In this document: piece after piece, positions 7,223 through 54,622 of the stretch
Position numbering within the stretch: the stretch's first letter is position 1
How the letters are laid out: every line of letters starts with the position of its first letter
From: Rhodamnia argentea
Taxonomy: Eukaryota; Streptophyta; Magnoliopsida; Myrtales; Myrtaceae
DNA: 64,000 nucleotides
Direction of reading: 5' to 3'
Assembly (NCBI RefSeq): GCF_020921035.1
Contig: NC_063158.1
Location: 26,956,962 to 27,020,961 of the forward strand
Position numbers and translations under genes: made by a program
Notes under the pieces: model-generated
What the model was told of the DNA's origin: nothing
Seen by the model: only the letters and a program-made list of their open reading frames with translations
Databases searched by the model: none

Positions 7223-10200
7223 TCACCACAGTCTGTCCCGTCCTGATGCATTCATCAGCCCCCCCTCGGCATAGCTATATTCCACATACACATGTTCTTC
7301 CTCACACAACTCCAACAAGATCCTCTTCTCTTCACCGCTTCTCATCTCTCCAAGCCTTATGATCCTGCCATCCTCTCTGATCCTCAGTTGAAGCTCTCTG
7401 ATAACACCGCCCAACAACCTTCCCAAGAAGTCCTCAAATTCGTGCATTGCGAACCCATTCGATGCGCCTAACCCTAACCCCACGTGAAACCGGTGTATGG
7501 GTATTGACATTTCAATGTTAACAGAGTGGTAGGACCTCATTGGACAGTCGGATAGGTGCAATATAGATGATTGCGGGTTCTTGTGAACTCGATCTTCGAG
7601 TATCTTCATTCCTTTCTTGAGCCCTTCAATCGGATCAGCCTGTCCCATGTAGAAAAGGCGATCAATGACTTGTAATGCCGTTCGCTTCCCGTAAGATGTC
7701 ATTCGCCTCAGCGGAAAAACTCTGGCAGCTGCAGATGAATAGGTGACAATGGCTAAGCGGTCGATCGGTCTGAGAGAGAACACCACCAATGCCATGGACT
7801 GCTTAAGGAGCCTAAGGTGCGGGCCATTGGGACTTGCCACGAGGACCAAATCCATTGCTGGCTGGTGTGTGAGCTTCACCGAGAGGTATGCTCTACGCGT
7901 ATGTGAGGTGCACATGTATGGTGTCTGATCTGGGGATGTGAAATGTTTCGGTACTGGTAATTGATGCAGAAACAAGGACGAGCTGCTCAGGTGATGCGAG
8001 GACGTGATTCCACGAGGATGGTGTGATCTTTGTTCACTAACTTGTTGAAACGGGTGTGTGCAGGGACGGAAGCTTGGGTGTGAGGGTGGAACCAGCATGA
8101 GAGAGAACTCTACGTGGGGATAACTGGATGTATGGTCAGGCTCTACCGGGTCATCATCGTCATAACGAGCAGAGCGCAAGAAAGAGCGTCGGTGGACTCG
8201 AAAGGTGGCGATGGAGTCATCTAGGATTTGGAGGATGGGGTCCGTTTGGTTGTAAGAAAGGGAAAAAGGCAGGTTGAGATTGCGGGGAAGCTGAGTCCAG
8301 TGGGCACGGCAAATGGGGCAAGTGACGCTCCCGTGCCGGACATTCGAGGAGATGCAGGTGAAGTGGAACGCGTGAGAGCATTGGGCGGTGAATATGGCCT
8401 GCCCTGGGCTGCTACATGTACTGTAACTCAGAGGGTCCAGGCATATTGCACACAAGTTCTGCAACTGAAAAGGGTCAAACTGAAAGAGTCAGCTTCTTCT
8501 ACACAATCTAAGATCTTCAACTTGAAAATGGTTGATTCATATGAACAGAAAGCTGAAAAGAACTGAAATCGTAAATAGTGCAAAACATGCATCAGCTCTA
8601 TTGATGGTAAACCTATTTATTTTTACTTCTTTATATTGGTTTGATTGCTTTTCTCCTGTTGCTAACTACTTTAGTAGTAAACTTGACACGGATCCGCTGT
8701 GGCACCTCATTGGTGGTGTAGCAGATGAAGCAAGAAATATTCTGTTCAGATGCTGCAAATGCAAGCTAGAATTCCCGAGAACTAGGAAGCAATTCATCCA
8801 CTTTCCTGCAAACTAAAGGCATCGCTCATCTTTGGGATTCCAATGTGTCGACAAATCAAAGTACTTTGTTGCTGAAAATATCAGAGTTCATAATGACTGT
8901 GTTCTCTCCCCAGAAACAGAGCAATCACCATATAATTGCTCAGAGCAATGCGATTATGCTACTGGGGTCCAAATCAATCGATTATATTCTTGGGTTGTGG
9001 GGGTGGCATTCAATCGTGGCTGTTCTAGTGCAATGCAAACCCCACCAGGTTTCATACCATTTGGTAAAAGAAAGGCATGTTCTGAGGCTTTTTTTTGGTG
9101 CATATCTATCTTGTTCAAGAACATATTTGACAGCATGACCCACCCAAAACATGGCAGAGTTTTGTCAATTTCTAGAATTATCATATCACATGTCAAGTGT
9201 GGGTGAGAGTGGTTACGAAAAAGTGGGGGACAACATTCAAAATCGAATCAGTGTTCGAAAAATCTGACGAAGCATTACTGGTGATCCATGCGTGGGACAC
9301 TGCCAGTGGGTCCTAAGTCGTGCATGATTTTGATTTCAGCCTCTCCTTTTAGCTGAAACTGACCAACTCTCTCTAGCTGGTTGGCAAGAGGGAAGATCTA
9401 GAATTCTAGATTGTAACGTTGCATTGGTTTTCTGCATAAGACTGATTAACAAAATATACTTCAATATTATCAAAGTTCAGCCGATATTTACAAGGGTGAA
9501 GAGTGCAGCCTGCAGGCTCTTGTCTTCAAATCAAATTAGAAGATGTCAGAACTTTGGGAAATTAAAATAAAAAAGGGTAAAGGTTGCAAGGAGTATTCAT
9601 AGTTCCCTTTTTTTTTTTTTTTTTTTGTGTGAGCTCCTGGAATTGAAATGAAAATGTTGGAAATTGCACCAATTTGAAAGGGGAACAATAAAGATAAAGC
9701 AGAGAATGTGAAAATGTGAGAGCGGTCAAAATCAAGAGCCATTGGATTCCAAAAGGAAAAATTTAGCGTGTGATCGCTTTTGAGGGTGGATTTATTGAAC
9801 GATTGAGATCTGATGCATTCCAATCCAACGGCAAAAGATTGCGGCGGTTCCGTGCCCGCATGGGAGAATAGACTCAGGCCACTCCTAAATGACTTTTGTA
9901 GCTATAGGTAGACTATACAGAATGAGCCAGAAGCTTCACATATGCTCAACACCCATTAAAAATCAAAAGCTTTTTTCTTTTTTCCCTCGAGCATGCTCTC
10001 GTTTTGGTTTTCCTTTTTCCTATTTCTTCAAGAAATTATGGGAAGAATTCAAGACTGAATCTTTCGTACTTGGAATGAGGGCAATGTGGAAGTGGCTGTT
10101 ACCTTGGAAGTGACATTGCTGGCAGATTCCGTTTCCTCCACGTTTTCTGAGAAATTCTCTCGTTTTCTGAGAGACATAAGTGATGAATTCGAGATCTGCT

Positions 10201-20232: not shown

Positions 20233-20772
20233 TCAGGTGAAGAGCTTCGACACGACGGTGCAAATCTCTGAGAGCCGCTTCAGGTCGCGGTTCCTCCCCG
20301 CCATCAGTGGCGCGTACGCGCTGCCCCCGAAGGCCCTGTCGCAGTCTTCGGCCGCATTGGCTCCGCCGCCGGAGTACCCAGCGAGGTCGGAGAAGGTCTC
20401 CGAGTTGAGGTCGTTGTAGGCCGACTCGAACTTGGCAATGGCGGCGGCGTAGTGGCGGCTGCAGGACTGGAGGCTGCTGGTGAGGCCGGGGCTGCGGTCG
20501 GTGAGGCCGGGGCTGCGGAGGAGGCCGGAGATGTGGTCCCGGGTGTGCGTGGCGTTGAGGTAGGCGAGGCCGAAGGAGATGTAGGCGAGGAAGTAGGCGT
20601 CGGCGTTGGGGGTGCGAGGGTCGGAGTAGAGGGCGGCGACGCAGTAGCGGTAGTCGCTGGTCTTGTCGCAGACCCGCTTCACCATCTCCGTCGCTGCGGA
20701 GGAAGGATCGACGGAGAGGGCGATGAAGACGAAGCAGAGAAGAGCGAGGCGTGGAGAGGAAAACGACGTCAT
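20233..20772 (-). CDS. Putative invertase/pectin methylesterase inhibitor A0 (PMEI domain)
   Basis: A single-exon frame of 179 residues. A signal peptide (MTSFSSPRLALLCFVFIALS, cleavage near residues 25-28) precedes a four-helix PMEI-type domain with all four conserved cysteines (RVC, YRYC, LQSC, EDC). Family members are secreted to the apoplast or vacuole and cap invertases or pectin methylesterases; the Platanus Pla a 1 allergen belongs to this group. Sequence alone does not say which enzyme is inhibited. This gene is far more GC-rich than the array genes at 25.5-58 kb. It also carries a tandem duplication giving RSPGLT-DRSPGLT around the middle. A TATA-like box lies about 95 bp upstream. 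Family call is firm; target is unknown. Confidence 0.9.
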   Translation of the reverse strand: MTSFSSPRLALLCFVFIALSVDPSSAATEMVKRVCDKTSDYRYCVAALYSDPRTPNADAYFLAYISFGLAYLNATHTRDHISGLLRSPGLTDRSPGLTSSLQSCSRHYAAAIAKFESAYNDLNSETFSDLAGYSGGGANAAEDCDRAFGGSAYAPLMAGRNRDLKRLSEICTVVSKLFT

Positions 20773-30995: not shown

Positions 30996-32539
30996 GGGCA
31001 AAAAGACACATGGAGTGTCAATATTTGTATATAGGGCTCATTTTAATGCCAATATTTTTTTTATCACTTAAGTGCTAAATCGGAAAAAAAAAAATTACTT
31101 AAGTGCCAATTCCGGCAAAAAACAATTACTTAAGTGCCAATTCCGGCCGGACAATACAAGTGAAATTTTTTATCTTTTAATATTAAGTGAATTTTTCTTT
31201 TTAAAAAAGGCCGTACGCATGGAAAAATAAAAAGCCAAAAATTAAAAATAATTTCCAAGTAATATTGAATTTTTTTAATAAAGCTAAATAACCAAAAAAT
31301 AAGCCAAAAGTTTTAAAAAAAAAAAAAAAAAGAAATTCGAGGTTGCAATGGTGAAGGCTTGCACAATCCTCATTGCTCCACCACCGTTGGCAATGGCCGG
31401 TGAGAGAGGGGGGGGGATGGGCCTGCCGGTAGGGGTCACCGAGCCCCAATCAATAGCCAGCGACCCCCACCGATGGGCGGCGAGGGCTCAACCTCACATA
31501 TTTGGGCAAGGTCGAGCCCCGACGGGGCCGGGGACGCCTGCCTCGCAACTACAGGTCAAGGGCAACCTCACCTAGCAACGGCCAAGATCTGCAAGGTCGA
31601 GCTCTTGCCGGCTACCGGCGTGGGTCGCCGACCACCGGCGGGGGCTCGACGTCCCCCACCGGCCCATCCCCAACACTCAACGGCCATGTCATTTGTTGTG
31701 GGGCGTTGGTGATGACAAGGGTTGTGCAAGCACTTGCCACTCAAACCTTCGAGTTCAATTTTTTCAGCTTATTTTTTAATTTTTTAATATTATGTGGATT
31801 TTTTTAATAAAATTTTTTTTTTTTTTTTTTCTGGTGGCTGGGATCCTCCAACAAGCCATGTAGATGCCATGTAAGATTTCCGGTGATGTTCATTGAAGTT
31901 GACACTCAAATAATAATTTTTTTTAAAAAAATTGACATTTAAGTGATAAAAAAAGGGCTAATACCATGGAAAGCCCCAAACCGGTATACTTGTGACAATT
32001 TTACTTCAAGCTATTTTTTTTGCCACGAAAAATTTCAAATTGGTACACCTATGACAATTTTATCCCAAACTATTTTTTTGACCGCAAAAAACCCTTAATT
32101 GGTACTTTTGTAGCAAAATTACTTTAAACTAATTTTTTGACCAAGAAAAACCCCAAGCTGGTATACACGTAACAAATTTACCTCCATTAAATTGGATTAA
32201 TACCACGAGAAACTCCAAATTAATAAACCTGTGACAAACATATGGTGAAAATTCCAAACTAATACACCCGTGAATTGTCACATGCCATCCAACTTAGCAA
32301 TTTGATGGTTAGATTTAACTAAAATTATTGGAAGGTAAATTTATCACATATGTATCGGTTTGAGATAAATTTATCACGGGTGTACCGGTTTAGCGTTTTT
32401 GGTAGTTAAAAAAATAATTTGGGGTAAATTTCTTACATGTGTACTAATTTAGAGTTTTCCGTTGTATTAATCCTAAAAAAAAAATTGACAACAAAGTGAG
32501 CTCGGTATATAAATATTGACACTTCATATGTCCTTCCCT
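30996..32539. mobile_element. MULE-like element with 9-bp target duplication, 1544 bp including a nested MITE
   Basis: Terminal inverted repeats of about 70 bp match well (left GGGCAAAAAGACACATGG ... AGTGTCAATATTTGTATA; right, reverse-complemented, AGGGAAGGACATATG ... AGTGTCAATATTTATATA). The flanks are CTTAATTAA on both sides (30987-30995 and 32540-32548). Sister units show the empty site (GCTTAATTAAGGTATTAG near 58674). The interior has AT-rich shoulders and a very GC-rich core (31380-31740). Size and core composition fit a non-autonomous Mutator-like element. The core open frames are composition artefacts or captured DNA I could not identify. Confidence 0.85.
31955..32474. mobile_element. 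Nested Mutator-like MITE, about 520 bp
   Basis: It lies inside the right shoulder of the 30996-32539 element. Ends are GGGCTAATACCATGGAAAGC and, reverse-complemented, AGGATTAATACAACGGAAAA. The interior is an imperfect tandem of phrases such as TTGGTACACCTATGACAATT. It interrupts an A-run, so the target duplication cannot be read. A second copy with a clear 9-bp duplication lies at 38231-38701. Confidence 0.75.
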
Positions 32540-33288
32540 CTTAATTAAGGTATCAGTCAAGGAAGGAAGATTTGGGTGCATATCAGCTGGTCTTTTGTCA
32601 TCTAGTCCATCTAAAGTCTTGACCATAATAAAGTTGCTATCTAAGCACATTAAATTTTATAAAAGTCGATCCATCAATTATAAGAACTCGAGTTGATTCC
32701 GTCGTGACAAAGAACGTCAACCATAGGCTATATCAGTTTAGTCACCATCGCATGCACCTAAAGTGATGGACCGACCATGAGTCATTTTGTGTAGCACACA
32801 AGTTACTGATAGCAACACATGTTTTCGGAAGACCTTTGACATCCCTATTACAACCGGTTGCAAAAAGAAGGAAGGAAAAAAAAAAGAGAAAGAAAAGGAA
32901 AAAAAATAATTCAAAAATATAGTAAAATACTATTAAACATTGATGCATCAACGTCGGCCACGTTACGTCAGCCATTTGCAGTCAAAATTAGACGGATTGA
33001 TTGAATTGACATAAATGCAAAATGTCTGAAACTGAATCAATAATTATAATATATTTATAATTTTTTTGGTAATTTTCCTTGTTCTCTAGGGTATCATCGA
33101 TTGTACCATTGTGGCATCAACTATCAGATATACCACATTTTTTCAAACTTCCGTAACCTGCGTTTTATCCTCAGCTGGACGATTCATACAAGGGACAAAC
33201 ATGCTGAAACTTCCTCACCATCCCCTATGTCCTTTAATCTTCAAGTGATATAGCATACATTTCCACGCTGCAATTCGAGATAAACTAA

Positions 33289-33510
33289 AGCTCCATTCGT
33301 TTTGTGAAAAATAACTTTCAGAAAAATATTTTTCGATATTCGGTGAAAAATAAATAAGTTAAGGAAAATACTTTTCACCCATTAAAAAAGTACCTTCAAA
33401 AGTCAAGAAAATGATTTTCTCTATTTCATGTCTTACTAGCAAGTTAATATTTTTCACCCATTAAAAAAGTACCTTCAAAATGATTTCCTCTATTTCATGT
33501 CTTACTAGCA
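33289..33510. repeat. PIF-like fragment followed by a direct duplication
   Basis: 33289-33371 matches the left end of the PIF-like element at 43928, at the same position in the unit (TAAACTAA just before it). It is followed by two copies of a segment starting TTTTCACCCATTAAAAAAGT (33372-33441 and 33451-33510); the second copy lacks about 10 bp. Confidence 0.75.
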
Positions 33511-34208: not shown

Positions 34209-34710
34209 CAGGAAAATTACCAAAAAAAATCATAAACATATTATAGTTGTGCAGGTCTAAACCTTTTTTTTTTCCAATTAAGTTCTAAATCTTTTGCTTT
34301 TATGCTAATTCGATCGGTGCCGATGTGGCAATTTTCAATAATATTGGAATATTTTTTTCGATTTTTTTTTCCTTCTCCTTCTTCCTCCAACAGGTGACTA
34401 GCGAGAGGTGAGGGCCAGCGAGGCCGAGGATTGCCATGGATGGGTCTCGTGCTCTCTCTTGGACAATCGAGGCTGGAGGAAGAAGGAGAAGAAAAAAAAA
34501 GTAATTGGAAAAATATTATTAAAAATTATCCACGTCGGTGCCGACAGCTTTACGGCGGTGCTGGTTGGCCAACGCTGGCTAGATATACCGAATTGACACA
34601 AATGTAAAAAGTTTAGATCTTAATTGGCAAAAAGAAAAAGAAAAGCTTGCGACTAAATTGGCACAAATTGCAATAGCTTTAGGACTTTTTTCTTTTTTGG
34701 TAATTTTCTC
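34209..34710. mobile_element. Mutator-like MITE in unit 2, 502 bp
   Basis: Ends CAGGAAAATTACCAAAAAA and, reverse-complemented, GAGAAAATTACCAAAAAA are flanked by CAAATTTAT (34200-34208) and CAAATTTAC (34711-34719), a 9-bp duplication with one mismatch. Unit 1 shows the empty site (GCTCAAATTCACCACATACG near 28067). A short GC-rich core lies at about 34390-34480. Non-coding. Confidence 0.82.
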
Positions 34711-36825: not shown

Positions 36826-39776
36826 GTGAAAGAAGTGATCCAAAAACTATTAATAAACATTTCCCTTGAGCCTTCATTTCCTTGCAAATTCATGTCAATC
36901 TTTGTTCATTTGCCTTATTGTTACTCATTAGATTGAAGTAGCGTGAACAACTCACGCATATACTCTTGCACACACTCTCCAAAAGCCAACCTACCCTTCT
37001 GCAGAAACAAACGGTGGTGTCAGAATCAGGTCTTTGGTTACTATTGGGTGTTTTTCCTACCCACCTGTTACTAAATTACCCATCCAAATTTTCCGACACC
37101 ACATCCATGGCAAACCTGCTTCATCCTCATTTCTCATTCCCATTTTCAATGGGAATGATTACAACTATTGGCGTATTAAAATAACTATGTTCCTGATGGC
37201 CCAAGATTTATGGGACATCATGGAGAAAGGTTATGAGGCTCCGTGAGACGGTGCAACTGTTAAATATGGCGAATTAGGCTTGGGAGATACTACGAGAAGA
37301 ATTTCAAGGATCGTAAAAGGTACGCACTATTCGGCTTCAAACTCTTAGAACAGAATTTGAGAATTCTAAAATAAAAGTAAATGAAAATGTTCAAGAATAC
37401 TGTGGAATATTAAAAGAACTAGTTAATCAAATGAGATCATGTGGAGATTAAATCACTAGTCAGAGGGTCATATGAAAAATAAGAGTGTCACTTAATAGAA
37501 AATACAGTCCTATTGTTACAACCATAGAAGCAACTAAGGATTTAAAGACTCTATCAGTAAGTGAATTAATTGGCTCTCTCGAAGCACATGAGAAAAGACC
37601 AATGGCGCAAGATGAAGATTTAGTTGAACGTGCATTTCAGTCTAAAATAAACATTTGCTCTCATCTATCTAAAAGTAATGGAAAGAGCTCATGGAAAAAT
37701 AAAAGAGGAGGAGAAATTTCACAAAAGGAAAAATGTCCACTTTATGGTTTTTGCAAGAAAACTAATCATTTAGGGAAAGATTGCCGATTTAGAAGTAAAT
37801 CACAATTTCGCTTTTGTAAAAGATATGGCCACGTATAGAAAGATTGTCGCTTGAAAACAAATTGCCAAGAACTATAATAAAGAAAAGGAAAAAAAAGATA
37901 ATATATTTTATGCAGGCCAAACGGCGAATGATAAGAAAAATGACACTTGGTACATTGATAGGTTGTAGCCATCATATGACATGGGCTGAATCTATATTCC
38001 CCGAAATTGATAAATTGATGAAATCCCAAGTAAAATGGGCAACGGCCTAATAGTCGACGTGAAAGGAAAAAGCACTATCGTTGTTGAAACAAATAAAGGC
38101 CTAAACTATATTCACAATGTATATTTAGTCCCCATTCTTACACAAAATCTCGAGTGTGGGCCAAATTATGCAAAGTGGATATTCTTTATATTTTAGTGGA
38201 GATGCCTGCATTATTAATATAAAAATATTAGGAATAATACCACAAAAAATTTCAAATTGGTACACCTGTGATAAATTTACCCCAAACTAGTATACCCGTG
38301 ATAAATTTACCTTCTATTAGTTTCTGTTAAATTTTGTCGTCAAATTATTGATTTCGATGATAAGTGGCAATTGACGAGTATATTAGTTTGGGATTTTTAC
38401 CTTCTGTTTGTCATAAATGCATCGGTTTGGGATTATTCAATGTATTAACCTAACTTAATGAAAACTAACGAATGGTAAATTTGTCACAATTGTACCGGTT
38501 TAAGAATTTTTGTGGTAAAAAATTAGTTTAGGGGTAAATTTTGTCACAAGAGTACCAATTTGGAGTTTTATTTGGTCAAAAAATTACTTTGGAATAAATT
38601 TATCACGGGTGTATCGGTATAGGATTTTTCATGGTCAAAAAATAATTTAGGATAAATTTGTCATAGGTATACGGGTTTGGGATTTTTCGTGGTATTGACC
38701 CAAAATATTATTGCCTCTATTAAAATGGAGAATAGGAACTTTCCTATTCGATGGAAGTATATTAGGAATATGGCCATGAAAGCTTATCTTGATGAGCCAT
38801 GGCTATGACATCGAAGATTTGGCCACTTCAATTTTGTTGGGATAAAAATTCTCAATCAGAAATACACAATGATAAATTTTCTAGCCATTTTGAAAATTTC
38901 AAATGTTTGTTAAGGCTGCCTCTTTGAAAAACAACAAAGGCGGTCCTTCCCATCTAAAGGTGCATGGAGAGCTGAAAAGCCATTGGAACTAGTTCGTACG
39001 GAAGTCTAAGGTCCAATGACGACTAAAGCCAGTCGGAATAGATTTTTAATTCAATTCATTGACACGAGAATGACATGGGCCTACTTTTTTCGCGAAAGAT
39101 TAGAGATTTTATCTATTTTGAGAAAATTCAAGATCCACGTCAAGAATCAAAGTGGCTGTAGAATCAAAAGTCCTAAGGAGCGACAGATGCACAGAATAAA
39201 ATTCAAGGGAGTTCAACAAGTTCTGTTAAGACGAAGGAGTTCATCATCAATTCGCTGTTGGTTATGCCCCTGAGCAAAATAAAGTAGCTGAAAGAAAGAA
39301 TAGAACCCTCATGGAGATGTCAATCTGTGTTAAAGGAGAAAGGACTTTCAAATTTGTTCTAGGCAAAAGCAGTCTTCACAACTTTATATATCTTAAACAG
39401 GTGTCCAACTAGAGCTATTCAAAATAAAACTCTTGTCGAAACATGGAGCAAACGAAAGCCTTCGGTGAAGCACCTCAAGGTGCTCAGCTATATATGCTAT
39501 GTCTACAATCCTACTCAAAAGAGGAGCAAGCTAGTTGAAAAGACAGAAAATGGAATATTCATCAGCTACAACAACCAATCAAAAGGCCAACGCCTCTACA
39601 ACCTAAGAACTAAGAAGCTCATGATCCGTCGAGGTGTCGAGTTCGAATGCTGCTTGGAACTTGAAGGACTGGAAGATCTAGATTAATTATGCTGCCTTAC
39701 TTGACATACCACCTACACGTGAAGAATCAACAACACAAGAAGAAGGTAAAGCATAGGATTCATCCACTCACGACAT
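36826..39776 (+). mobile_element. Fossil Ty1/copia element (broken), replacing part of unit 3
   Basis: Copia-type gag-pol remnants run on the plus strand. A leader with a TGGTGTCAGAATCAGG primer-site-like sequence lies near 37014, followed by gag (NGNDYNYWRIKITMFLMAQD), a Cys/His region near 37730-37830, and protease/integrase-region remains up to about 39690. It has many breaks, is truncated at both ends and has no matching LTR pair, so it is clearly old. A 471-bp MITE is inserted in it. Unit sequence resumes at about 39777. Confidence 0.75.
38231..38701. mobile_element. Mutator-like MITE nested in the copia fossil, 471 bp
   Basis: Ends GGAATAATACCACAAAAAAT and, reverse-complemented, GGGTCAATACCACGAAAAAT are flanked by a perfect 9-bp duplication, AAAATATTA (38222-38230 and 38702-38710). 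Same family as 31955-32474. Non-coding. Confidence 0.88.
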
Positions 39777-41282: not shown

Positions 41283-41837
41283 TCAGACATTGAGCCACTT
41301 TGCAAGAGCAACACAAATCACTGAAAGGCCGTAAAGATCGTTGTTGTTATTAGCCAACGGAGATTTTGTTCCATCAAAGGCCGATTCGCAGTCCTTCGCT
41401 TGTTCGCCTGTCATAGAAGCAAAGTAGGTCAATCTGCCGTAGGTCAATCTGCCATATGTCTTCTGATCCAGGTCAGTTAAAGCCAGAAAAGTTTTCACGA
41501 TGGCCGTTGCGTAATCTAGGTGGCATTGCTCGAGGTGCTGGTGCAACAGACCGGTGGAGTTACTGAGCAGCGAAGTTATCTGGTCTTGGGTGCTCGAAGC
41601 ATTGCGATTTGCCAAATCGAAGGCCACGTAGGCTAGTTTGGCCCCGTCAGCGCCCGGTGTGCGCGGATCAGAGTTGAGAGTGTCCTTGCAAAACTTGTAA
41701 TAGGGCGCTGTTTGGTTGCAGATCCGCTCGACTAGCTCGGAATCAGCGGCGACGAACGAAGATCCAATGGTGATTGACGCAAGAAAGGTGAAGAATGTGA
41801 GATTGCAGAAGAGAAGAAGAGCATATGATGTTGCCAT
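41283..41837 (-). CDS. Putative invertase inhibitor A4 (PMEI domain) with internal 5-residue repeat
   Basis: A 184-residue frame from MATSYALLLFCNLTFFTFLA. The signal peptide ends near residue 33; the PMEI domain keeps all four cysteines (RIC, YKFC, LEQC, KDC). It differs from sister genes by a 15-bp tandem duplication (about 41427-41456) that gives TYGRLTYGRLTYF in the loop/helix before the last cysteine. The frame is kept, so the protein is 5 residues longer than expected. N-glycosylation sequons NQT, NAS and NST are present. Promoter elements match A2. Likely functional, though the added residues could disturb helix packing. Confidence 0.9.
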   Translation of the reverse strand: MATSYALLLFCNLTFFTFLASITIGSSFVAADSELVERICNQTAPYYKFCKDTLNSDPRTPGADGAKLAYVAFDLANRNASSTQDQITSLLSNSTGLLHQHLEQCHLDYATAIVKTFLALTDLDQKTYGRLTYGRLTYFASMTGEQAKDCESAFDGTKSPLANNNNDLYGLSVICVALAKWLNV

Positions 41838-42189: not shown

Positions 42190-42366
42190 CTACTTAGTTG
42201 ACCGACAATGACAAAGGCTTGCGAAACCATAGGTTATATTCGTTTAGACATCATCGCATGCACCTCAAGTGGTGGACCGACAGTGATTCATCCGGTGTAG
42301 CACACGAGTTAGCGACAGCTACTCATGTTTTCGGGAGACCTTTAAGATCCTCATTATTACTGGCAG
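42190..42366 (-). pseudogene. Type B inhibitor remnant B3 (C-terminal tail only)
   Basis: Reads, on the minus strand, NNEDLKGLPKT and then a TGA where sister copies have the Cys codon TGT, followed by VAVANSCATPDESLS. The upstream break (near 42362) is at the same place as in B2 and is followed by the same MITE half, so the truncation predates the duplication of these two blocks. Confidence 0.75.
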
Positions 42367-42389
42367 GAGGAAGAAGGAACAAAAGGAAA

Positions 42390-43775
42390 CAAAAAGAAAA
42401 TATTAATATATAAATTGAAAATATATTAAAATGTTATTAAAAATTAACAAAGCAGCATTGGTGACGCCACTTCAGTAATTTCCAATTAGAATTTGGCGGA
42501 TAGACTGAATTGATACAAATACAAAAGGTTTAAGACTGAATTGACACAATTATAATATATTTATGATTTTTTTTTTTGCAGAAGGACATCGGAATTGCGA
42601 AAGTTTATGTAAGGCACTCACTTTGATGTCAATTTTTTTGAAAAACTATTATTTGAGTGCTAATTTCCGTGAGCTTTGTCAGAAATCTTAAGTAGCAATG
42701 TTTTATTAATAATATAATCCTACGTGGCTTGTCGAAAAATCCTAATCAGTAATAAAAAAAAAGCTAAAAGTTAAAAAAATATTTACAAATTAATAAAATT
42801 TTAAAAAGGCTAAAAAAAAAGAAAAGTTAAAAAAGAGAAAAGAAAATGGAAGCCTTGTAGAGGGTGGGGGATGGCCGACGACCCCTGCGGACTGCAGGCG
42901 AGGGCCTGTAGGCCCTTGCCTAGATTTGGAGAGGGTCGTCGGCCCTTGCCCAGGTCTGGTCGAAGGCTGCTGCTGGCGGGCCTGATGACGAAGTGGGTAG
43001 AAATCGGATTGAAGTAGAGCATGGTTTAGGCATTTCGTCGAACACTTGGTGCGCGAGCTGAATAAATGGAGAGCCAAAAGAAACGCGCACGCGAGAAGCG
43101 AAGCGGAGATGGGAAGAAGCATCGACTGGTGGGGTTCAACCGGCAGTGGCGGTCCGCGGGATGAAATTCGTGTTCTCTGTTGGGAACTCCATCATCTATG
43201 GAGCAGCCAAGGTCTTCAATTTCGTGTCCCAAACAGCAGTGTTCTTCTCGGTCTTGTATTACCTCATTACGGCACAATCCGGAGGGGTTACGGTGCAAGT
43301 AATGGGTATGCTTCCAATGCCAAACTGGGCGAGGATTAGATGTGTCGAATTTTTTGATAAAGAGTTCTTCTGGCAATGACTGAGATTGCTTTCTTGCAAT
43401 GATTTATCACCTGGCTTGTGACCCTTGCCAGCGGTTGGCGGGGCACGCCGGCCACTGGCCGGGGCTGGACGAGCCACGCCGGCCATTGCCAGCGGTGGTA
43501 GGTCGGCGGCTTGGGCTATGCAAGCCCTTGCAGTTCCATCGTTGCCATTTTCTTTTTCTTTTTTCAACTTTATTTATTTATTTGTTTATTTTTTCAATGT
43601 AATTTAGTTTAATAAAAAAAATAAAATACTAAATATTATTAAAATTTTGCCATGTCAGTATCAGCGAGTCAAATGAACTGAATTGACACAAATGTAAAAG
43701 ATTTATGATGCATTGACACAATTAAAATAAATTTATGAGTTTTTTGATAATTTTCCCAACTATCAAATATACCAC
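42390..43775. mobile_element. Composite of MULE-like/MITE sequences carrying captured DNA
   Basis: 42390-42575 and 43625-43765 are right halves of the 34209-type MITE. Between them, from about 42583, is an AT-rich shoulder that matches the terminal repeat of the 30996 element (GGCACTCACTTTGATGTCAA), then GC-rich stretches (42850-43040 and 43395-43540) flanking a non-repetitive segment at 43040-43390. The right terminal repeat of the MULE is not evident, so the composite seems truncated or nested. Confidence 0.6.
43146..43355 (+). pseudogene. Captured fragment of a TMEM245-like transmembrane protein gene
   Basis: The frame reads [20 protein letters not shown], then [20 protein letters not shown], then [20 protein letters not shown] and CVEFFDKE. 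This closely follows the segment of plant TMEM245 (AI-2E-like family) that I recall as AKFVFSIGYSIISGAAEFFN ... VLYYLITSESGGVTEQVMNM. Only about 70 codons of a roughly 650-residue protein are present. It ends at a TGA soon after similarity stops (43377-43379). It lies between GC-rich repeat segments, typical of gene pieces caught by Mutator-like elements. It is not expected to make a working protein. Confidence 0.75.
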
Positions 43776-43927
43776 ATTTTATCAAATTCAGTAACTAGCA
43801 TTTTATCCTCAGCAGGGTAATTCATACGAGGGACAAACGTGCTGTTACTTTCTCACCAGCCTCTTTTTCCTTCACTCTTCTAAGTGCTATGGAAGACATT
43901 TCCACACCGTATCTTGTGATAAACTAA

Positions 43928-44714
43928 GGCTCCGTTCATTTCGCAAAAACAACTTTCAAGAAAATATTTTTCGAATTTTTTGGAGTTTGGCTCACGAAAA
44001 TAAATGAGTTAATAAAAAAAATTTCTACCTATAGAAAAACATTTTGAATTCCTTACCAAAAAAAAAAAAACATTTTGAATAGTGAAGAAAATGATTTCCT
44101 CTTTTTGAAAAGAGAAAAATATTTTTCCTCATCTTTTCTCCGTCCACTCCTTCATATTCCTTTTCTTTATAATTATTTGTTTATTTTTCATTTCTTTTCT
44201 TTCATTTTTTTAATTTTTACTTTTTTTTTTATTGTGTTTCTTCTTACGTCCGTCCCCGGCCACGGCGACGGCCGGCAATCGGCCACAGGCAAGGCACGAC
44301 ATTGAGTCTCCTCGGCCTCAAGCAAGGCTTCACCTTGCTAATTCCGATGACGTCAACCTCGCTTGAGGTCGGCGAGGCTCAAGCTCAACCGTGGTTTGAC
44401 GATAGAAGAAAAAGGTAAAAGGAAAAAAAAAAAAGCAAGAAATTACTAAAATTAAAAGAGAAAAAAATAAAAACATAAAAAATTGAATTAAAAATTAAAA
44501 ATAAAATAAAAACAAATAAAAATATGAAATACAAAATTATTAAAAGGAGTGCAGAGGCGAATGATTTTCCATACTGAACAGTGCAAATATTTATTTTCAA
44601 GGTTTGTTTTTTTTTTTGTTCAAATATTTGCAGGGTTTAAAAACCGGAAAATATTGTCAACTTCCCGAAAAATATTTTCCAAAAACACCTCATTTTCTGT
44701 CAAATGAACGGAGC
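43928..44714. mobile_element. PIF/Harbinger-like MITE, 787 bp
   Basis: Ends GGCTCCGTTCATTTCGC and, reverse-complemented, GCTCCGTTCATTTGACAG are flanked by TAA on both sides (43925-43927 and 44715-44717). The empty site is seen in unit 1 (CACAAACTAATTGTCCG near 28220). A left-end fragment at the same unit position occurs at 33289. A GC-rich core lies at 44245-44400. Non-coding. Confidence 0.82.
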
Positions 44715-49019: not shown

Positions 49020-49285
49020 TTAGACATTGAGCCACTTTGCAAGAGCAACACAAATCACTGAAAGCCCGTAAATATTGTTGTTGTTATCAGTCAACGGAGA
49101 TTTGGCTCCCCTAAAGGCCAATTCGCAGTCCTTCGCTTGGTCGCGTGTCATGGAAGCAAAGTAGCTCAATCTGCCATATGTCTCCCAATCCAAGTCGGTT
49201 AAAGCTAGTGTAGTTTTCACAATGGCCGTTGCATAATCTAGGCGGCATTGCTCGAGGTGCGGGTGCACTGGACCGGTCGAGTTAC

Positions 49286-49566
49286 TGTTGGAGCTGTGTC
49301 CCAGTGCTGCTGCTGTTTTTCTTGTTGTTTTAGTTCTTTTTTTTCTATTTTGCAGTCAAGTTTGATTTGTTAGGTAGTTAGTTTGTTAGCTATTTTCTAG
49401 GAAGTGGAACAAGTCAGTTTTTTGCACGTTTGTGTGCAGTTCAAAACAAGTTCCTATTAAGCTTGTACTTGACAGTTTTCAAAGTTAAGGTTTCTAGTCT
49501 TCTATTCCATCTCTCTCTATGCAAGTGCAGAAAATTGTGATAGCTGATCCTTAATCAGCATTAACA
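49286..49566 (+). repeat. 5' LTR of the A5 copia element
   Basis: 281 bp, beginning TGTTGGAGCTGTGTCC and ending CAGCATTAACA. Followed immediately by the primer-binding site at 49568-49579. Confidence 0.95.
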
Positions 49567-52500
49567 GTGGTATCAGAGCTTCTGTGGGATCTTAAGGGAC
49601 TGTGAAGTGAGGGTAAGCGAGCATGCAAACCGTGAAGTAAGGGTAAGCGAGCCCGCAAAGACAAAGCTATGGAGGCGGGATCAAGTGGATTCTCTACAAT
49701 GGCTACTCCGGTCTTTACCGGGGAAAATTATCAAGCTTGGGCTGTCAAGATGACAACATTCTTGGAGGGTCATGATCTATGGGAGGCTGTGGAGAATGAT
49801 TATGAGATTGCTCCGCTTCCAAACAATCCGACCTTGAATCAGATAAAGTTCCATAAAGAGAGAACCACAAGGAAGGCCAAGGCAAAGACTTGCCCGTATC
49901 TTCTTGTCTCACCCCATATCTTCACAAGGATCATGAGATGTGATTCTGCAAAGGCAATATGGGATTGCTTGAAGAATGAATACGAGGGAGATGAGAAGAT
50001 AAGAAGCATGAAGGTGCTGAATCTCTTAAGGGAGTTTGAGAGACAACGGATGAAGGATTCAGAGTCGGTGAAGGAATACTCTGATAGGCTGATTGAGATA
50101 GCTGAAAAGATCGTAGTTTTAGGGACTGACTTGAAGGATGAAAGGCTGGTTCGGAAGATCCTGGTGTCTCTTCCAGAGAAGTTTGAAGCCACCATAGCTT
50201 CTCTGGAAAATACAAGAGATTTAGCCGACATAGAGCTTGCGAAATTGTTAAGTGCCCTACGGGCACAAGAGCAAAGAAGACCGATGAGAAGAGAAGAGCC
50301 TATAGAGGGTGCAATGCAAGCTAAAGTGAAGTTCAATGATGGAGGCAAAGGGAAGAAATGGAATCAGCCCAAAGGAAATGCAGGTGACTCCAAGTTTGTA
50401 GCGAAAGAAGGAAGTTCTAGTGGGTCCGGCAAATGGAAGAAGAACAAGAAGCCTTGTCAACACTGTGGCGGAACTACTCATCGGTCCTTTAGATGCTGGA
50501 GGAGGCCTGATGCTAAGTGCATAAGATGTCACAAGATGGGTCACATGGAAGCAATCCGCAAAGAGAACAATCACCAAGAAGCGGGAGAAGCACAGATAGC
50601 AGTGAATGAGACCGAAGAAGAACGCTTGTTTGTGGCTTCCTATTCTGGTTCTCCCGTTGAGAATGATGCATGGCTGGTGGATAGTGGCTGTACCAATCAT
50701 ATAACTAGCAATTTGAAGCTGTTTAGGAGTCTAGACAAGTCGGTCAGGTCCAAAGTCAGAATTGGCAATGGACAGTATATCGAAGTGCAAGGGAAGGGTA
50801 CAGTGGCTATTGAAGGAAATCGGGATGTGAAGCTGATTAGTGATGTTCTCTTTGTGCCAAAAATAGACCGGAATCCGTTGAGTGTTGGCCAATTAGTTGA
50901 GAGGGGCTATAAAGTGAAGTTTGAAGGAGAGGAATGCCTTATTGATAATGCAGATAGCAAGGAAGTACCGAGAATGCCAATGAAAGACAAGTGCTTCATG
51001 TTCAAGCCACGAGAAATGCAACAAATGGTTTTGAAGTGCAAAGAAGAAAATGCAGAGCTATGGCATAAAAGGCTTGGACATGTTCACTGGAAGAACATGT
51101 TGTTTATGCAGAGGAATAGCTTGCGGATGACTTGCCAAGTTTGGAGGAGGAATTTCCACAAAGGTAGTAACTTGTCTTCTTGGCAAGCAAGCCCGATTTC
51201 CTTTCAAAGGAGGAGGTTGGAGAGCATGTGAGAAGCTGCAATTAGTCCACACAGACTTATGTGGACCTATGTCCGAGTCATCTCTCAATGGTAGCAGGTA
51301 TTTCATTACTTTCACAGATGACATGACTAGAATGAGCTGGATTTACTTTCTGCAAGCCAAGTTTGAAGTTGTTGATGTGTTTGTGAAGTTCAAAGCCTTA
51401 GTTGAGAATCAGAGTGGGAAGAAAATCTAAATGCTCAAGTCTGATAATGGTTCTGAGTATCTTGCTCACAAGTTTAAGTTAAACTGTGAGGAAGCAGGCA
51501 TTATGCAGCATTTCATCGCCCCCTATTCATCTCAACGGAATGGGGTCGGTGAGAGGAAAAACAGAAGCATTATGGAAATGGCCGGATGTATGATGCAGGA
51601 GAAGATGTTACCTAAGAAGTTCTGGTCTGAGGCGGCTAACACTGCAGTGTTCTTGTTGAATAGATTGCCCACAAAGGCCTTAGAGAGGTCAACACCTTTT
51701 GAAGTTTGGTATGGTGTTAAACCTTATGTAAAGAATTTAAAAGTTTTTGGGTGTTTGTGTTATACGCATGTTCCTCGGGTCAAGAGGGACAAGTTGGATC
51801 AAAGAGCCGAGCCTGGAGTATTCATTGGATACAGTCTCCAATCAAAGGCTTACAGGATTTTTCAGCCTATGACGGGGAAGGTGACTGTGAGTAGAGATGT
51901 TGTTTTTCTAGAAGAAGATGAGTGGAATTGGATCGAAGAAAAGAATGCAAGACAGAAGAAATCTGCAGAACAACAACCTACAACAACCGTACAGGTTAAT
52001 GAAGTTGTGAATGGATTAGAAGATACTATGGATGATATGCCAATAAGAGGCACAAGGTCACTTGCTGAAGTTTATGAAAGAAGCAATGTGGTAGTGCTTG
52101 AACCAGCTAACTTTGTGGAAGCTAAGGAGGATCAGAAGTGGATTGCAGCAATGCGGGAGGAGTTGACAATGATTTAGAAAAACCACACATGGGAGCTTGT
52201 TGACGGACCATATGACAAGTGTGATTGGGGTTAAGTGGGTGTTCAAAAAAAAACTTAATCCCGATGGTTCCGTCAATAAACACAAAGCTAGACTAGTTGC
52301 GAAAGGCTATCCTCAGATATGGGGAGTAGATTATTCTGAAACTTTTGCGCCCGTTGCAAGACTTGATACAATCAGGCTACTTTTAGTGTTGCAGCGAGAG
52401 AAGGAGTGGCCTATATTTCAACTAGACGTCAAGTCTGCATTTTCGAATGGAGAGCTCGAAGAGGAGATTTTTGTTGAACAACCTGAAGGCTTCAATGCCA

Positions 52501-53635
52501 AAGGGCAAGAAGAGAAGGTATACAAATTGAGGAAAGCTCGTATGGATCAAGGTGCTCCAAGAGCTTGGTATGGAAAGATAGACAGATATCTCAGGATTTT
52601 GGCTTTGCAAGAAGCTTGAGTGAGTTCACTCTTTATGTCAAGAAGGTGAATCACAGTGTTGTAATTCTGTCACTCTATGTAGATGATTTGTTGGTGACGG
52701 GGAATAATGTGGAACCGATAGAGAGGGTGAAGCAAGGTGCATTTGCAGCTTTTGAGATGTCAGACTTGGGACATATGGCTTATTTTCTAGGTTTGGAAAT
52801 CAAACAAACTTCACATGAGATTTTCATCCGCCAAAAGAAATACATGAAGGAAATTTTGAAGAAGTTTCGGATGGAAGATTGTAGAAGTGTCGGCACTCCT
52901 ATGGTCGTTAAGGAGAAGCCGCAAAAGAATGATGGAACAAGCGATAGATGCTTCAATGTATAGAAGCTTGATTGGATGTCTCATGTATCTCACAGCAACT
53001 AGACCGGACATTCTATTTGTTGTGAGTGTTTTATCCAGGTTCATGAGTAGTCCTAGTCGGTTACATTTGGTCACCGCAAAAAGGGTCTTGAGATACATCA
53101 AAGGAACATTGTTCTTTGGTGTGAAGTTTAGGAAAGGCCAGAAGTTTAAGTTGCGGGGTTTTTCTGATAGTGACCGGGCTGGCTCAGTAGATGACATGAA
53201 GAGTACATCCGGGTACTGTTTCACTCTTGGTTCCGCTTGTTTCTCTTGGTGTTCCAAAAAGCAGGAGATTGTAGCTCAGCCCACTGCAGAGGCTGAGTTT
53301 ATAGCAGCTCTTGCAGCTGCAAATCAAGTTTTGTGGCTGAAGAAGATAATGAAGGATCCGTGGTTGAGTTCTCGTGATTGCATTGAAGTTTATGTGGACA
53401 ATCAGGCTGCTTTAGCAATATCACAGAATCCAGTTTTCCATGGCAAAACCAAGCATTTTAAGATCAAATTCTTCTTTCTACGTGAAGTGCAACAAAGTGG
53501 TGAAGTTAAGTTGGTTTATTGCAAATCAGAAGATCAGCTTGCAGACATGTTCACAAAGCCACTTCAGGTTGAAAGATTTGAGCTGTTAAGGAAGAAAATT
53601 GGAGTTTGCAGCAGCAACTGATCCAAGGAGGAGTT

Positions 53636-53912
53636 TGTTGGAGCTGTGTCCCAGTGCTGCTGCTGTTTTTCTTGTTGTTTTAGTTCTTTTTTTTCTGTTT
53701 TGCAGTCAAGTTTGATTTGTTAGGTAGTTTGTTAGCTATTTTCTAGGAAGTGGAACAAGTCAGTTTTTTGCACGTTTGTGTGCAGTTCAAAACAGGTTCC
53801 TATTAAGCTTGTACTTGACAGTTTTCAAAGTTAAGGTTTCTGGTCTTCTATTCCATCTCTCTCTATGCAAGTGCAGAAAATTGTGATAGCTGATCCTTAA
53901 TCAGCATTAACA
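53636..53912 (+). repeat. 3' LTR of the A5 copia element
   Basis: 277 bp with the same ends as the 5' LTR; it differs by three substitutions and a 4-bp indel. It is preceded by the polypurine tract near 53623-53633. Confidence 0.95.
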
Positions 53913-54622
53913 GTTACTTTGTAGGGCAGTTATCTGGTCTTGGGTGCTCGAAGCGTTGCGATTCGCCAAACTGAAGGCAACATAGGCTAGTTTGGCCCCA
54001 TCAGCGCCCAATGTGCGCGGATCAGAGTTGAGAGCGTCCTTGAAAAACTTGTAATAGGGTGTTGTTTGGTTGCATATCCGCTCCACTAGCTTGGAATCGG
54101 CGGCGACGAGCAAAGATCCAATGGTGATTGCAGAAGAGAAGAAGAGCATAAGATGTTGCCATCGTTCTCTTTTCTCTGATCTGAATTTTGGGGGATGGTT
54201 GTTGAATCGTGCCTACAGGAGCCCTGTTAATCTCTGCTTAAGTAGGAACGAGAGATGTAAAATTCCCAGGTTTAACAGGAATGTATCAATTAATTGCAGC
54301 TTTATTTTTGCGACATGGAGGCTTCTGCAACATAAATTTAAATGGAAAGGATAGAAATAGATTCCCATTATAGTAAATGAATGGGATCCTGATTTTAGTA
54401 CCAAAATGAGCTGGCAAGATGTTGTTTATTATATCTGTCCTATTCTCATCAGCATCACCTAATTAAGGTATTAGTCAAGGAAGGAAGATTTAGGTGCATA
54501 TCAGCGAGTCTTTTGCCATCTACTCGATCTATAGTTAGACCATAGTCAGTTGCTATCTAAGCACATTATATGATAAAGCCAATTCATAAATTACACGAGC
54601 GGGGAGTCGATTCCGTTGTGAC

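What the first reader, a model, noticed from the sequence alone, without database searches (positions are those of the whole stretch)
42390..43775. Mutator-like composite carrying a captured TMEM245-like gene fragment
About 70 codons at 43146-43355 match plant TMEM245 strongly in wording and lie between GC-rich repeat cores with a MULE-type shoulder on the left. This is the signature of a Pack-MULE. The surrounding non-repetitive segment (43040-43145) may hold a second capture I cannot name.
Basis: partly seen in the sequence, partly recalled or inferred. Interest (0 to 1): 0.75.

Follow-up and report, generated by a model that had tools for sequence, protein, structure and literature searches.

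The report
Decayed gene fragment in transposon composite
In a plant genome, a broken piece of what looks like an ordinary membrane-protein gene sits among pieces of old cut-and-paste transposons upstream of a pectin-enzyme-inhibitor gene; this is a familiar kind of transposon gene capture, too damaged to look like a working mobile unit.

Summary
The fragment had no above-cut-off library match, but neither have the same 66 residues of the comparator, so the name rests on recall. It carries a stop and a frameshift; no other part of the gene was found in the window.

Both flanks are repeat-derived. The left arm and inner right part match an element at 31-32.5 kb; the outer right end belongs to another family, complete at 34.2-34.7 kb. 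Both whole elements have inverted ends and 10-11-bp target duplications, as Mutator-like elements do. A paralogous locus lacks the insert.

But the composite's ends are not inverted repeats of each other and show no target duplication, so it is not an intact Pack-MULE. Best reading: a Mutator-type element with a captured fragment, inserted upstream of a PMEI gene, that later lost its right end. Ordinary; low interest.

The parts
42360..42576 (+). AT-rich right half of a family-E1 Mutator-type element, left part missing; shared with the paralog at 32.8 kb, so probably older than that duplication
   Evidence: aligned in one stretch with the paralog, 42300-42573 to 32794-33067 (73%); the match with the 55-kb paralog ends at 42359
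42577..42850 (+). left arm of a family-E2 Mutator-type element
   Evidence: 42581-42639 and 42618-42690 match rc of 32536-32478 and 31946-31872 (78%, 77%); alignment over about 42618-42824 scores 137, maximum of 200 base shuffles 56; outer end scores 66, reached by 0 of 300 shuffles. Limits approximate
42851..42965 (.). GC-rich core, left, with imperfect palindrome 42865-42952
   Evidence: inverted repeat 72%; GC 0.62-0.65. Right limit approximate
42966..43142 (.). unassigned segment, possible second captured fragment
   Evidence: no match elsewhere in the window; the 10 open frames of 25+ codons that overlap it gave no Pfam match above cut-off (weak rows at E 0.073, 0.23 and 0.27); a minus-strand frame holds a PPR-like string, a lead only
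43143..43420 (+). decayed TMEM245-like gene fragment; open to 43376, stop at 43377-43379, frameshifted continuation 43364-43420
   Evidence: bases 43143-43163 are assigned by inference only
43421..43545 (.). GC-rich core, right, similar to the core of E2
   Evidence: 43479-43631 matches rc of 31400-31260, 68%, E=1e-6; alignment score 115, maximum of 200 base shuffles 41
43546..43640 (+). AT-rich right sub-arm of E2
   Evidence: same alignments as the row above; the one runs on, gapped, to about 43702, so the E2/E1 junction near 43640 is approximate
43641..43756 (+). E1-family right end, in direct orientation to the one at 42504-42573, where an E2 right end is expected
   Evidence: 43677-43745 is 86% identical to 42504-42573, and 43679-43756 is 76% identical to 33002-33078; family alignment
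41283..41837 (-). PMEI gene (invertase/pectin methylesterase inhibitor) downstream of the insertion, one of a tandem array
   Evidence: Pfam PF04043 E=1.3e-18; paralogous DNA

Best explanation
A non-coding Mutator-type element of family E2 carried a captured, partial TMEM245-like coding segment between GC-rich cores. It inserted about 740 bp upstream of the start codon of a tandemly duplicated PMEI gene, into an older truncated E1-type element. Later its right end was lost and an E1-type right end took its place, probably by recombination in the AT-rich stretch near 43640. The TMEM245-like piece has decayed by stop and frameshift and most likely has no function. Shown: the fragment and its lesions relative to the recalled comparator, the two arm families, the paralog without the insert, and the lack of matching ends. 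Inferred: the order of events, and that E2 (not a repair event in place) did the capture.
For: Fragment match and frameshift; the comparator is an AI-2E_transport member, E=9.3e-11. E2 homology on both sides of the fragment, collinear and in one orientation. E2 at 30998-32539 has inverted ends and an 11-bp exact target duplication; E1 at about 34210-34710 has inverted ends and a 10-11-bp duplication with one mismatch; 0 of 100 shuffles reach their numbers of candidate duplications. The 28-kb paralog shows the site of that E1 insertion without it. The paralog at 32794-33261 has both outer flanks but 50 bp in place of 1183 bp. The fragment is in 1 of the 7 upstream units whose right flank matches at E up to 1e-3, this one included.
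Against: No inverted partner for either end was found across the fragment: E2 left end, score 28, reached by 71 of 300 shuffles; E1 right end, 29, reached by 42 of 300. No target duplication at the E2 left end and E1 right end, even with 2 mismatches allowed (0 candidates). A scan of many end pairs gave 0 at a strict setting, which the E2 control itself would fail, and 2 at a lax setting against 0 in 12 shuffles; I read one as AT-rich sequence and the other as a product of the direct repeat, which is a judgement. A weak trace of the missing E2 end cannot be excluded (score 42, reached by 2 of 300 shuffles). 'Mutator-type' rests on inverted ends and target duplication; the elements hold no ATG-started ORF of 120 codons and no transposase was sought. 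The fragment's name rests on a recalled protein. No host genome was available to show other copies.
Confidence: 0.66

Rival explanations
1. Filler DNA: a double-strand break in overlapping E1 and E2 copies at this locus was repaired by template switching, which pasted in a TMEM245 piece and perhaps another piece. The composite never moved as a unit.
For: Ends are mismatched and no target duplication was found at them. A gap-filling process is described as the main origin of single-copy captures by TIR elements in animals, and was proposed for Pack-MULEs (PMC8277862, passages).
Against: E2 homology on both sides of the fragment is collinear, as expected of a piece captured inside a whole element; but a piece filled into an E2 in place would look the same.
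Confidence: 0.24
2. The captured piece is a functional small gene, or a small-RNA source acting on the parent TMEM245, or a new regulatory region for the PMEI gene.
For: It lies upstream of a PMEI gene; 40% of Pack-MULEs are said to be transcribed (PMC8277862, passage).
Against: Stop at 43377, frameshift, second stop; 17 of 66 residues differ from the recalled comparator, among them W to S and E to K. No expression data were available.
Confidence: 0.05
3. Capture by another kind of transposon, such as a Helitron, or an LTR-type element using the 70-bp direct repeats as ends.
For: Flanking repeats are direct.
Against: The direct repeats are E1 ends, which occur as inverted ends of a whole element at 34.2-34.7 kb. 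Helitron ends were not searched for.
Confidence: 0.05

Closest known systems
Pack-MULEs (non-autonomous Mutator-like elements carrying genes or gene fragments)
   Same: Host-gene-like fragment without its full gene, between arms of Mutator-type families, near a gene; GC-rich interior
   Different: The two ends come from different families, are not inverted repeats of each other, and no target duplication was found
MULEs with tandem or multiple TIRs (PMC3310237; abstract and introduction read)
   Same: More than one end sequence of the same family around a gene fragment
   Different: Here the repeated E1 end lies on both sides in direct orientation and the other end is of another family
Single-copy Pack-TIRs ascribed to gap filling (PMC8277862; passages seen)
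   Same: Foreign piece in a TIR element, with no sign of movement as a unit
   Different: Described in animals; breakpoints and parent not testable here

Membership tests
Pack-MULE | Pair of long terminal inverted repeats around the captured piece | tested here: not met
   neither end has an inverted partner across the fragment (71 of 300 and 42 of 300 base shuffles reach the scores); the E2 and E1 controls are reached by 0 of 300
Pack-MULE | 9-11-bp target-site duplication | tested here: not met
   0 candidates at the composite's ends with up to 2 mismatches; controls E2 29 and E1 20 candidates (0 of 100 shuffles reach them); 0, lax scan of many end pairs: 2, judged AT-rich sequence and direct repeat, though 0 in 12 shuffles
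Pack-MULE | Carries a gene or gene fragment of the host | tested here: met
   with a comparator recalled from memory; that the parent is a host gene is inferred
Pack-MULE | Parent gene elsewhere in the genome | not testable with these tools
   no host genome held; no parent found within the window
Mutator-like element (families E1, E2) | Long inverted ends and 9-11-bp target duplication in whole copies | tested here: met
   E2 30998-32539, E1 34210-34710; one whole copy of each. The ungapped arms found are 62 and 49 bases, shorter than the 100-500 that PMC3310237 calls typical
Mutator-like element (families E1, E2) | Mobilised by a MuDR-type transposase | not tested
   no ATG-started ORF of 120 codons in the elements; no search for a transposase was made
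TMEM245 / AI-2E_transport | Match to Pfam PF01594 | tested here: inconclusive
   fragment: no PF01594 match at E up to 10. The 213-residue comparator matches (E=9.3e-11), its first 90 residues weakly (E=0.00031, below cut-off), and the 66 residues that align with the fragment not at all. PMC9333335 (passages): human TMEM245 itself matches the model only weakly

The most novel reading that the evidence does not exclude
A chimeric element with an E2 left end and an E1 right end that moves as a unit using two different Mutator-type families' ends, carrying two captured gene pieces (TMEM245-like, and a PPR-like piece on the other strand) into a PMEI promoter.
Probability: 0.04. Interest if true: 0.4.

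Novelty: new member of a known kind. Interest (0 to 1): 0.13.

Why it matters
It looks like one more instance of gene-fragment capture by Mutator-type elements, and of how nested elements near tandem genes become chimeric. The tandem PMEI copies give in-window sites without the insert, which makes part of the insertion history readable. It opens no new question.

Tried and rejected
Rejected: a full TMEM245 gene or its remains in place; recalled C-terminal and N-terminal parts gave no further significant match in the window. Rejected: LTR-type ends, since the 70-bp direct repeats are E1 ends. Not supported: a PPR-gene capture on the minus strand. The string LAHQVFDEMPKP looked like a PPR repeat, but the window peptides gave 0 Pfam families, while my typed full-repeat control matched PPR models above cut-off and the typed half-repeat control matched them below cut-off. 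Led nowhere: viral contigs and prokaryote genomes, with the fragment and with the recalled comparator; these scans reach close relatives only. PDB sequences. Paper searches for TMEM245 with plant or transposon, AT5G55960 (that gene name is recalled), Pack-MULE with Eucalyptus (the host genus is only a guess), Pack-MULE with pentatricopeptide or with GC-rich and upstream. An E. coli tqsA region was fetched and not used. Helitron ends and transposases were not searched for. The host species was not identified.

Full report
Context. The window (40% GC) carries a tandem array of related genes, mostly on the minus strand. Two of the ORFs were scanned and are PMEI, a plant family (41283-41837 and 20233-20772); the others are judged by DNA similarity. 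No host genome was held, and none of the collections searched here is a plant collection, so comparison was possible only within the window and with curated libraries.

The gene fragment. One frame is open from 43062 to 43376, 105 codons. Four residues of the comparator are missing between the pieces and only 2 bases lie between them, a net loss of 10 bases. The next best match has E=0.68, and a recalled N-terminal part gives nothing better than E=0.61. The comparator is a member of Pfam AI-2E_transport (E=9.3e-11, above the curated cut-off), the domain that PMC9333335 lists for TMEM245 (passages). The fragment alone matched nothing above cut-off in Pfam (one weak lipoprotein row, E=0.23), nothing in NCBIfam and no PDB sequence. 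As a control, the aligned 66 residues of the comparator match no Pfam family either, so that negative says little. Homology to the comparator is strong, but the comparator is recalled, and I wrote it down after seeing the window's translation.

The surroundings. Self-comparison shows that the upstream region at 32719-33389 is a paralog of the region at 42225-44039. It matches the left flank up to 42573/33067 and the right flank from 43757/33118, so 1183 bases here stand against 50 there. The right flank occurs in 7 units of the window at E up to 1e-3, this one included (at 28.1, 33.1, 34.7, 43.8, 46.9, 55.6 and 59.8 kb); the TMEM245-like piece is in 1 of them.

Two repeat families make up the composite. 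E1 is complete at about 34210-34710: inverted ends and a 10-11-bp target duplication with one mismatch, and the 28-kb paralog shows the site without the element. E2 is complete at 30998-32539, interrupted by a nested element at about 31956-32475: tips 13 of 20 alike, 81% complementary over a 62-base pair of arms, with an exact 11-bp duplication. With up to 2 mismatches and no demand on the ends, the two controls give 29 (E2) and 20 (E1) overlapping candidate duplications, numbers that 0 of 100 shuffles reach. Duplications of 9-11 bp distinguish Mutator-like elements from other DNA transposons (PMC3310237, introduction); the same text gives 100-500 bp as the typical end length, while the ungapped arms found here are 62 and 49 bases.

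In the composite, about 42618-42824 aligns with the E2 arm (score 137, maximum of 200 base shuffles 56), and the outer end from about 42577 with the E2 tip (score 66, 0 of 300 shuffles). On the other side, 43479-43631 matches E2 core and sub-arm in the same orientation (score 115, maximum of 200 shuffles 41, in an alignment that runs on, gapped, to about 43702). The expected E2 right end scores 42, reached by 2 of 300 shuffles, a weak trace at most. Instead the right border, about 43641-43756, is an E1 right end. It is a direct repeat of the E1 end at 42504-42573 (86%), which this locus shares with the 32.8-kb paralog and which is thus probably older than the insertion. These are single-base shuffles, which are lenient for AT-rich sequence.

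Test of the Pack-MULE claim. Neither end has an inverted partner across the fragment: 71 of 300 and 42 of 300 shuffles reach the observed scores, while 0 of 300 reach those of the two control elements. At the composite's own ends no target duplication was found with up to 2 mismatches (0 candidates), about the tolerance that PMC3903597 used for rice and maize elements (passages). A wider scan of many end pairs, joining tips and duplications, gave 0 at a strict setting against 0 in 20 shuffles, but the E2 control would fail that setting. At the lax tip setting used for the controls it gave 2, against 0 in 12 shuffles: one lies in AT-rich sequence, the other is produced by the direct repeat. I do not take either as a target duplication, though the shuffle count alone does not exclude them. 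A third element, at 43929-44714, gave 0 candidates in the scan.

The middle segment 42966-43142 has no match in the window. Ten open frames of 25 or more codons overlap it; none has a Pfam match above cut-off, with weak rows at E 0.073 (DUF2448), 0.23 and 0.27. On the minus strand it can be read as [17 protein letters not shown], which resembles a PPR repeat by recall. Pfam gave no match for it, whereas typed PPR controls matched, the half-repeat below cut-off.

History, inferred: an E1 element inserted and was truncated before the tandem duplication; later an E2 element with the captured piece inserted in the T-rich end of that E1 remnant; then recombination in the AT-rich stretch near 43640 put an E1 end in place of the E2 right end. 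An alternative is repair of a break with filler pieces. Without other copies from the host genome the two cannot be told apart.

Literature. Searches for TMEM245 with plant (9 papers) or transposon (1 paper), and Pack-MULE with Eucalyptus (4 papers), listed no report of this case by title and abstract start (listings only). A MULE upstream of a gene is described for rice PsbS1 (PMC4178011, listing only).

Noticed in passing
window 43929-44714: A further TIR element next to the composite: 21-base inverted ends, 86% complementary, starting GCTCCGTTCATTT, with a GC-rich core; its left part is also in the paralog (about 33288-33389). The scan gave no 8-11-bp duplication for it.
   Followed up: partly
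window 49279-53914: A Copia-type LTR retrotransposon (gag match) with end repeats of about 290 bp, 97% identical, inserted in the PMEI array.
   Followed up: no
window 31956-32475: A nested element with long imperfect inverted repeats inside the E2 copy; a relative lies at about 38259-38705.
   Followed up: no
window 20233-61246: A long array of PMEI-type genes and upstream regions with repeated partial duplications, useful as a set of sites without inserts for ordering insertions.
   Followed up: partly
window 42966-43142: Minus-strand frame reading ...[17 protein letters not shown]..., like a PPR repeat but without Pfam support.
   Followed up: yes
window 7223-8098: A 291-codon ORF on the minus strand with a weak VWA-domain match (PF13519, E=9.4e-06, 26.6 bits against a cut-off of 27).
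   Followed up: no
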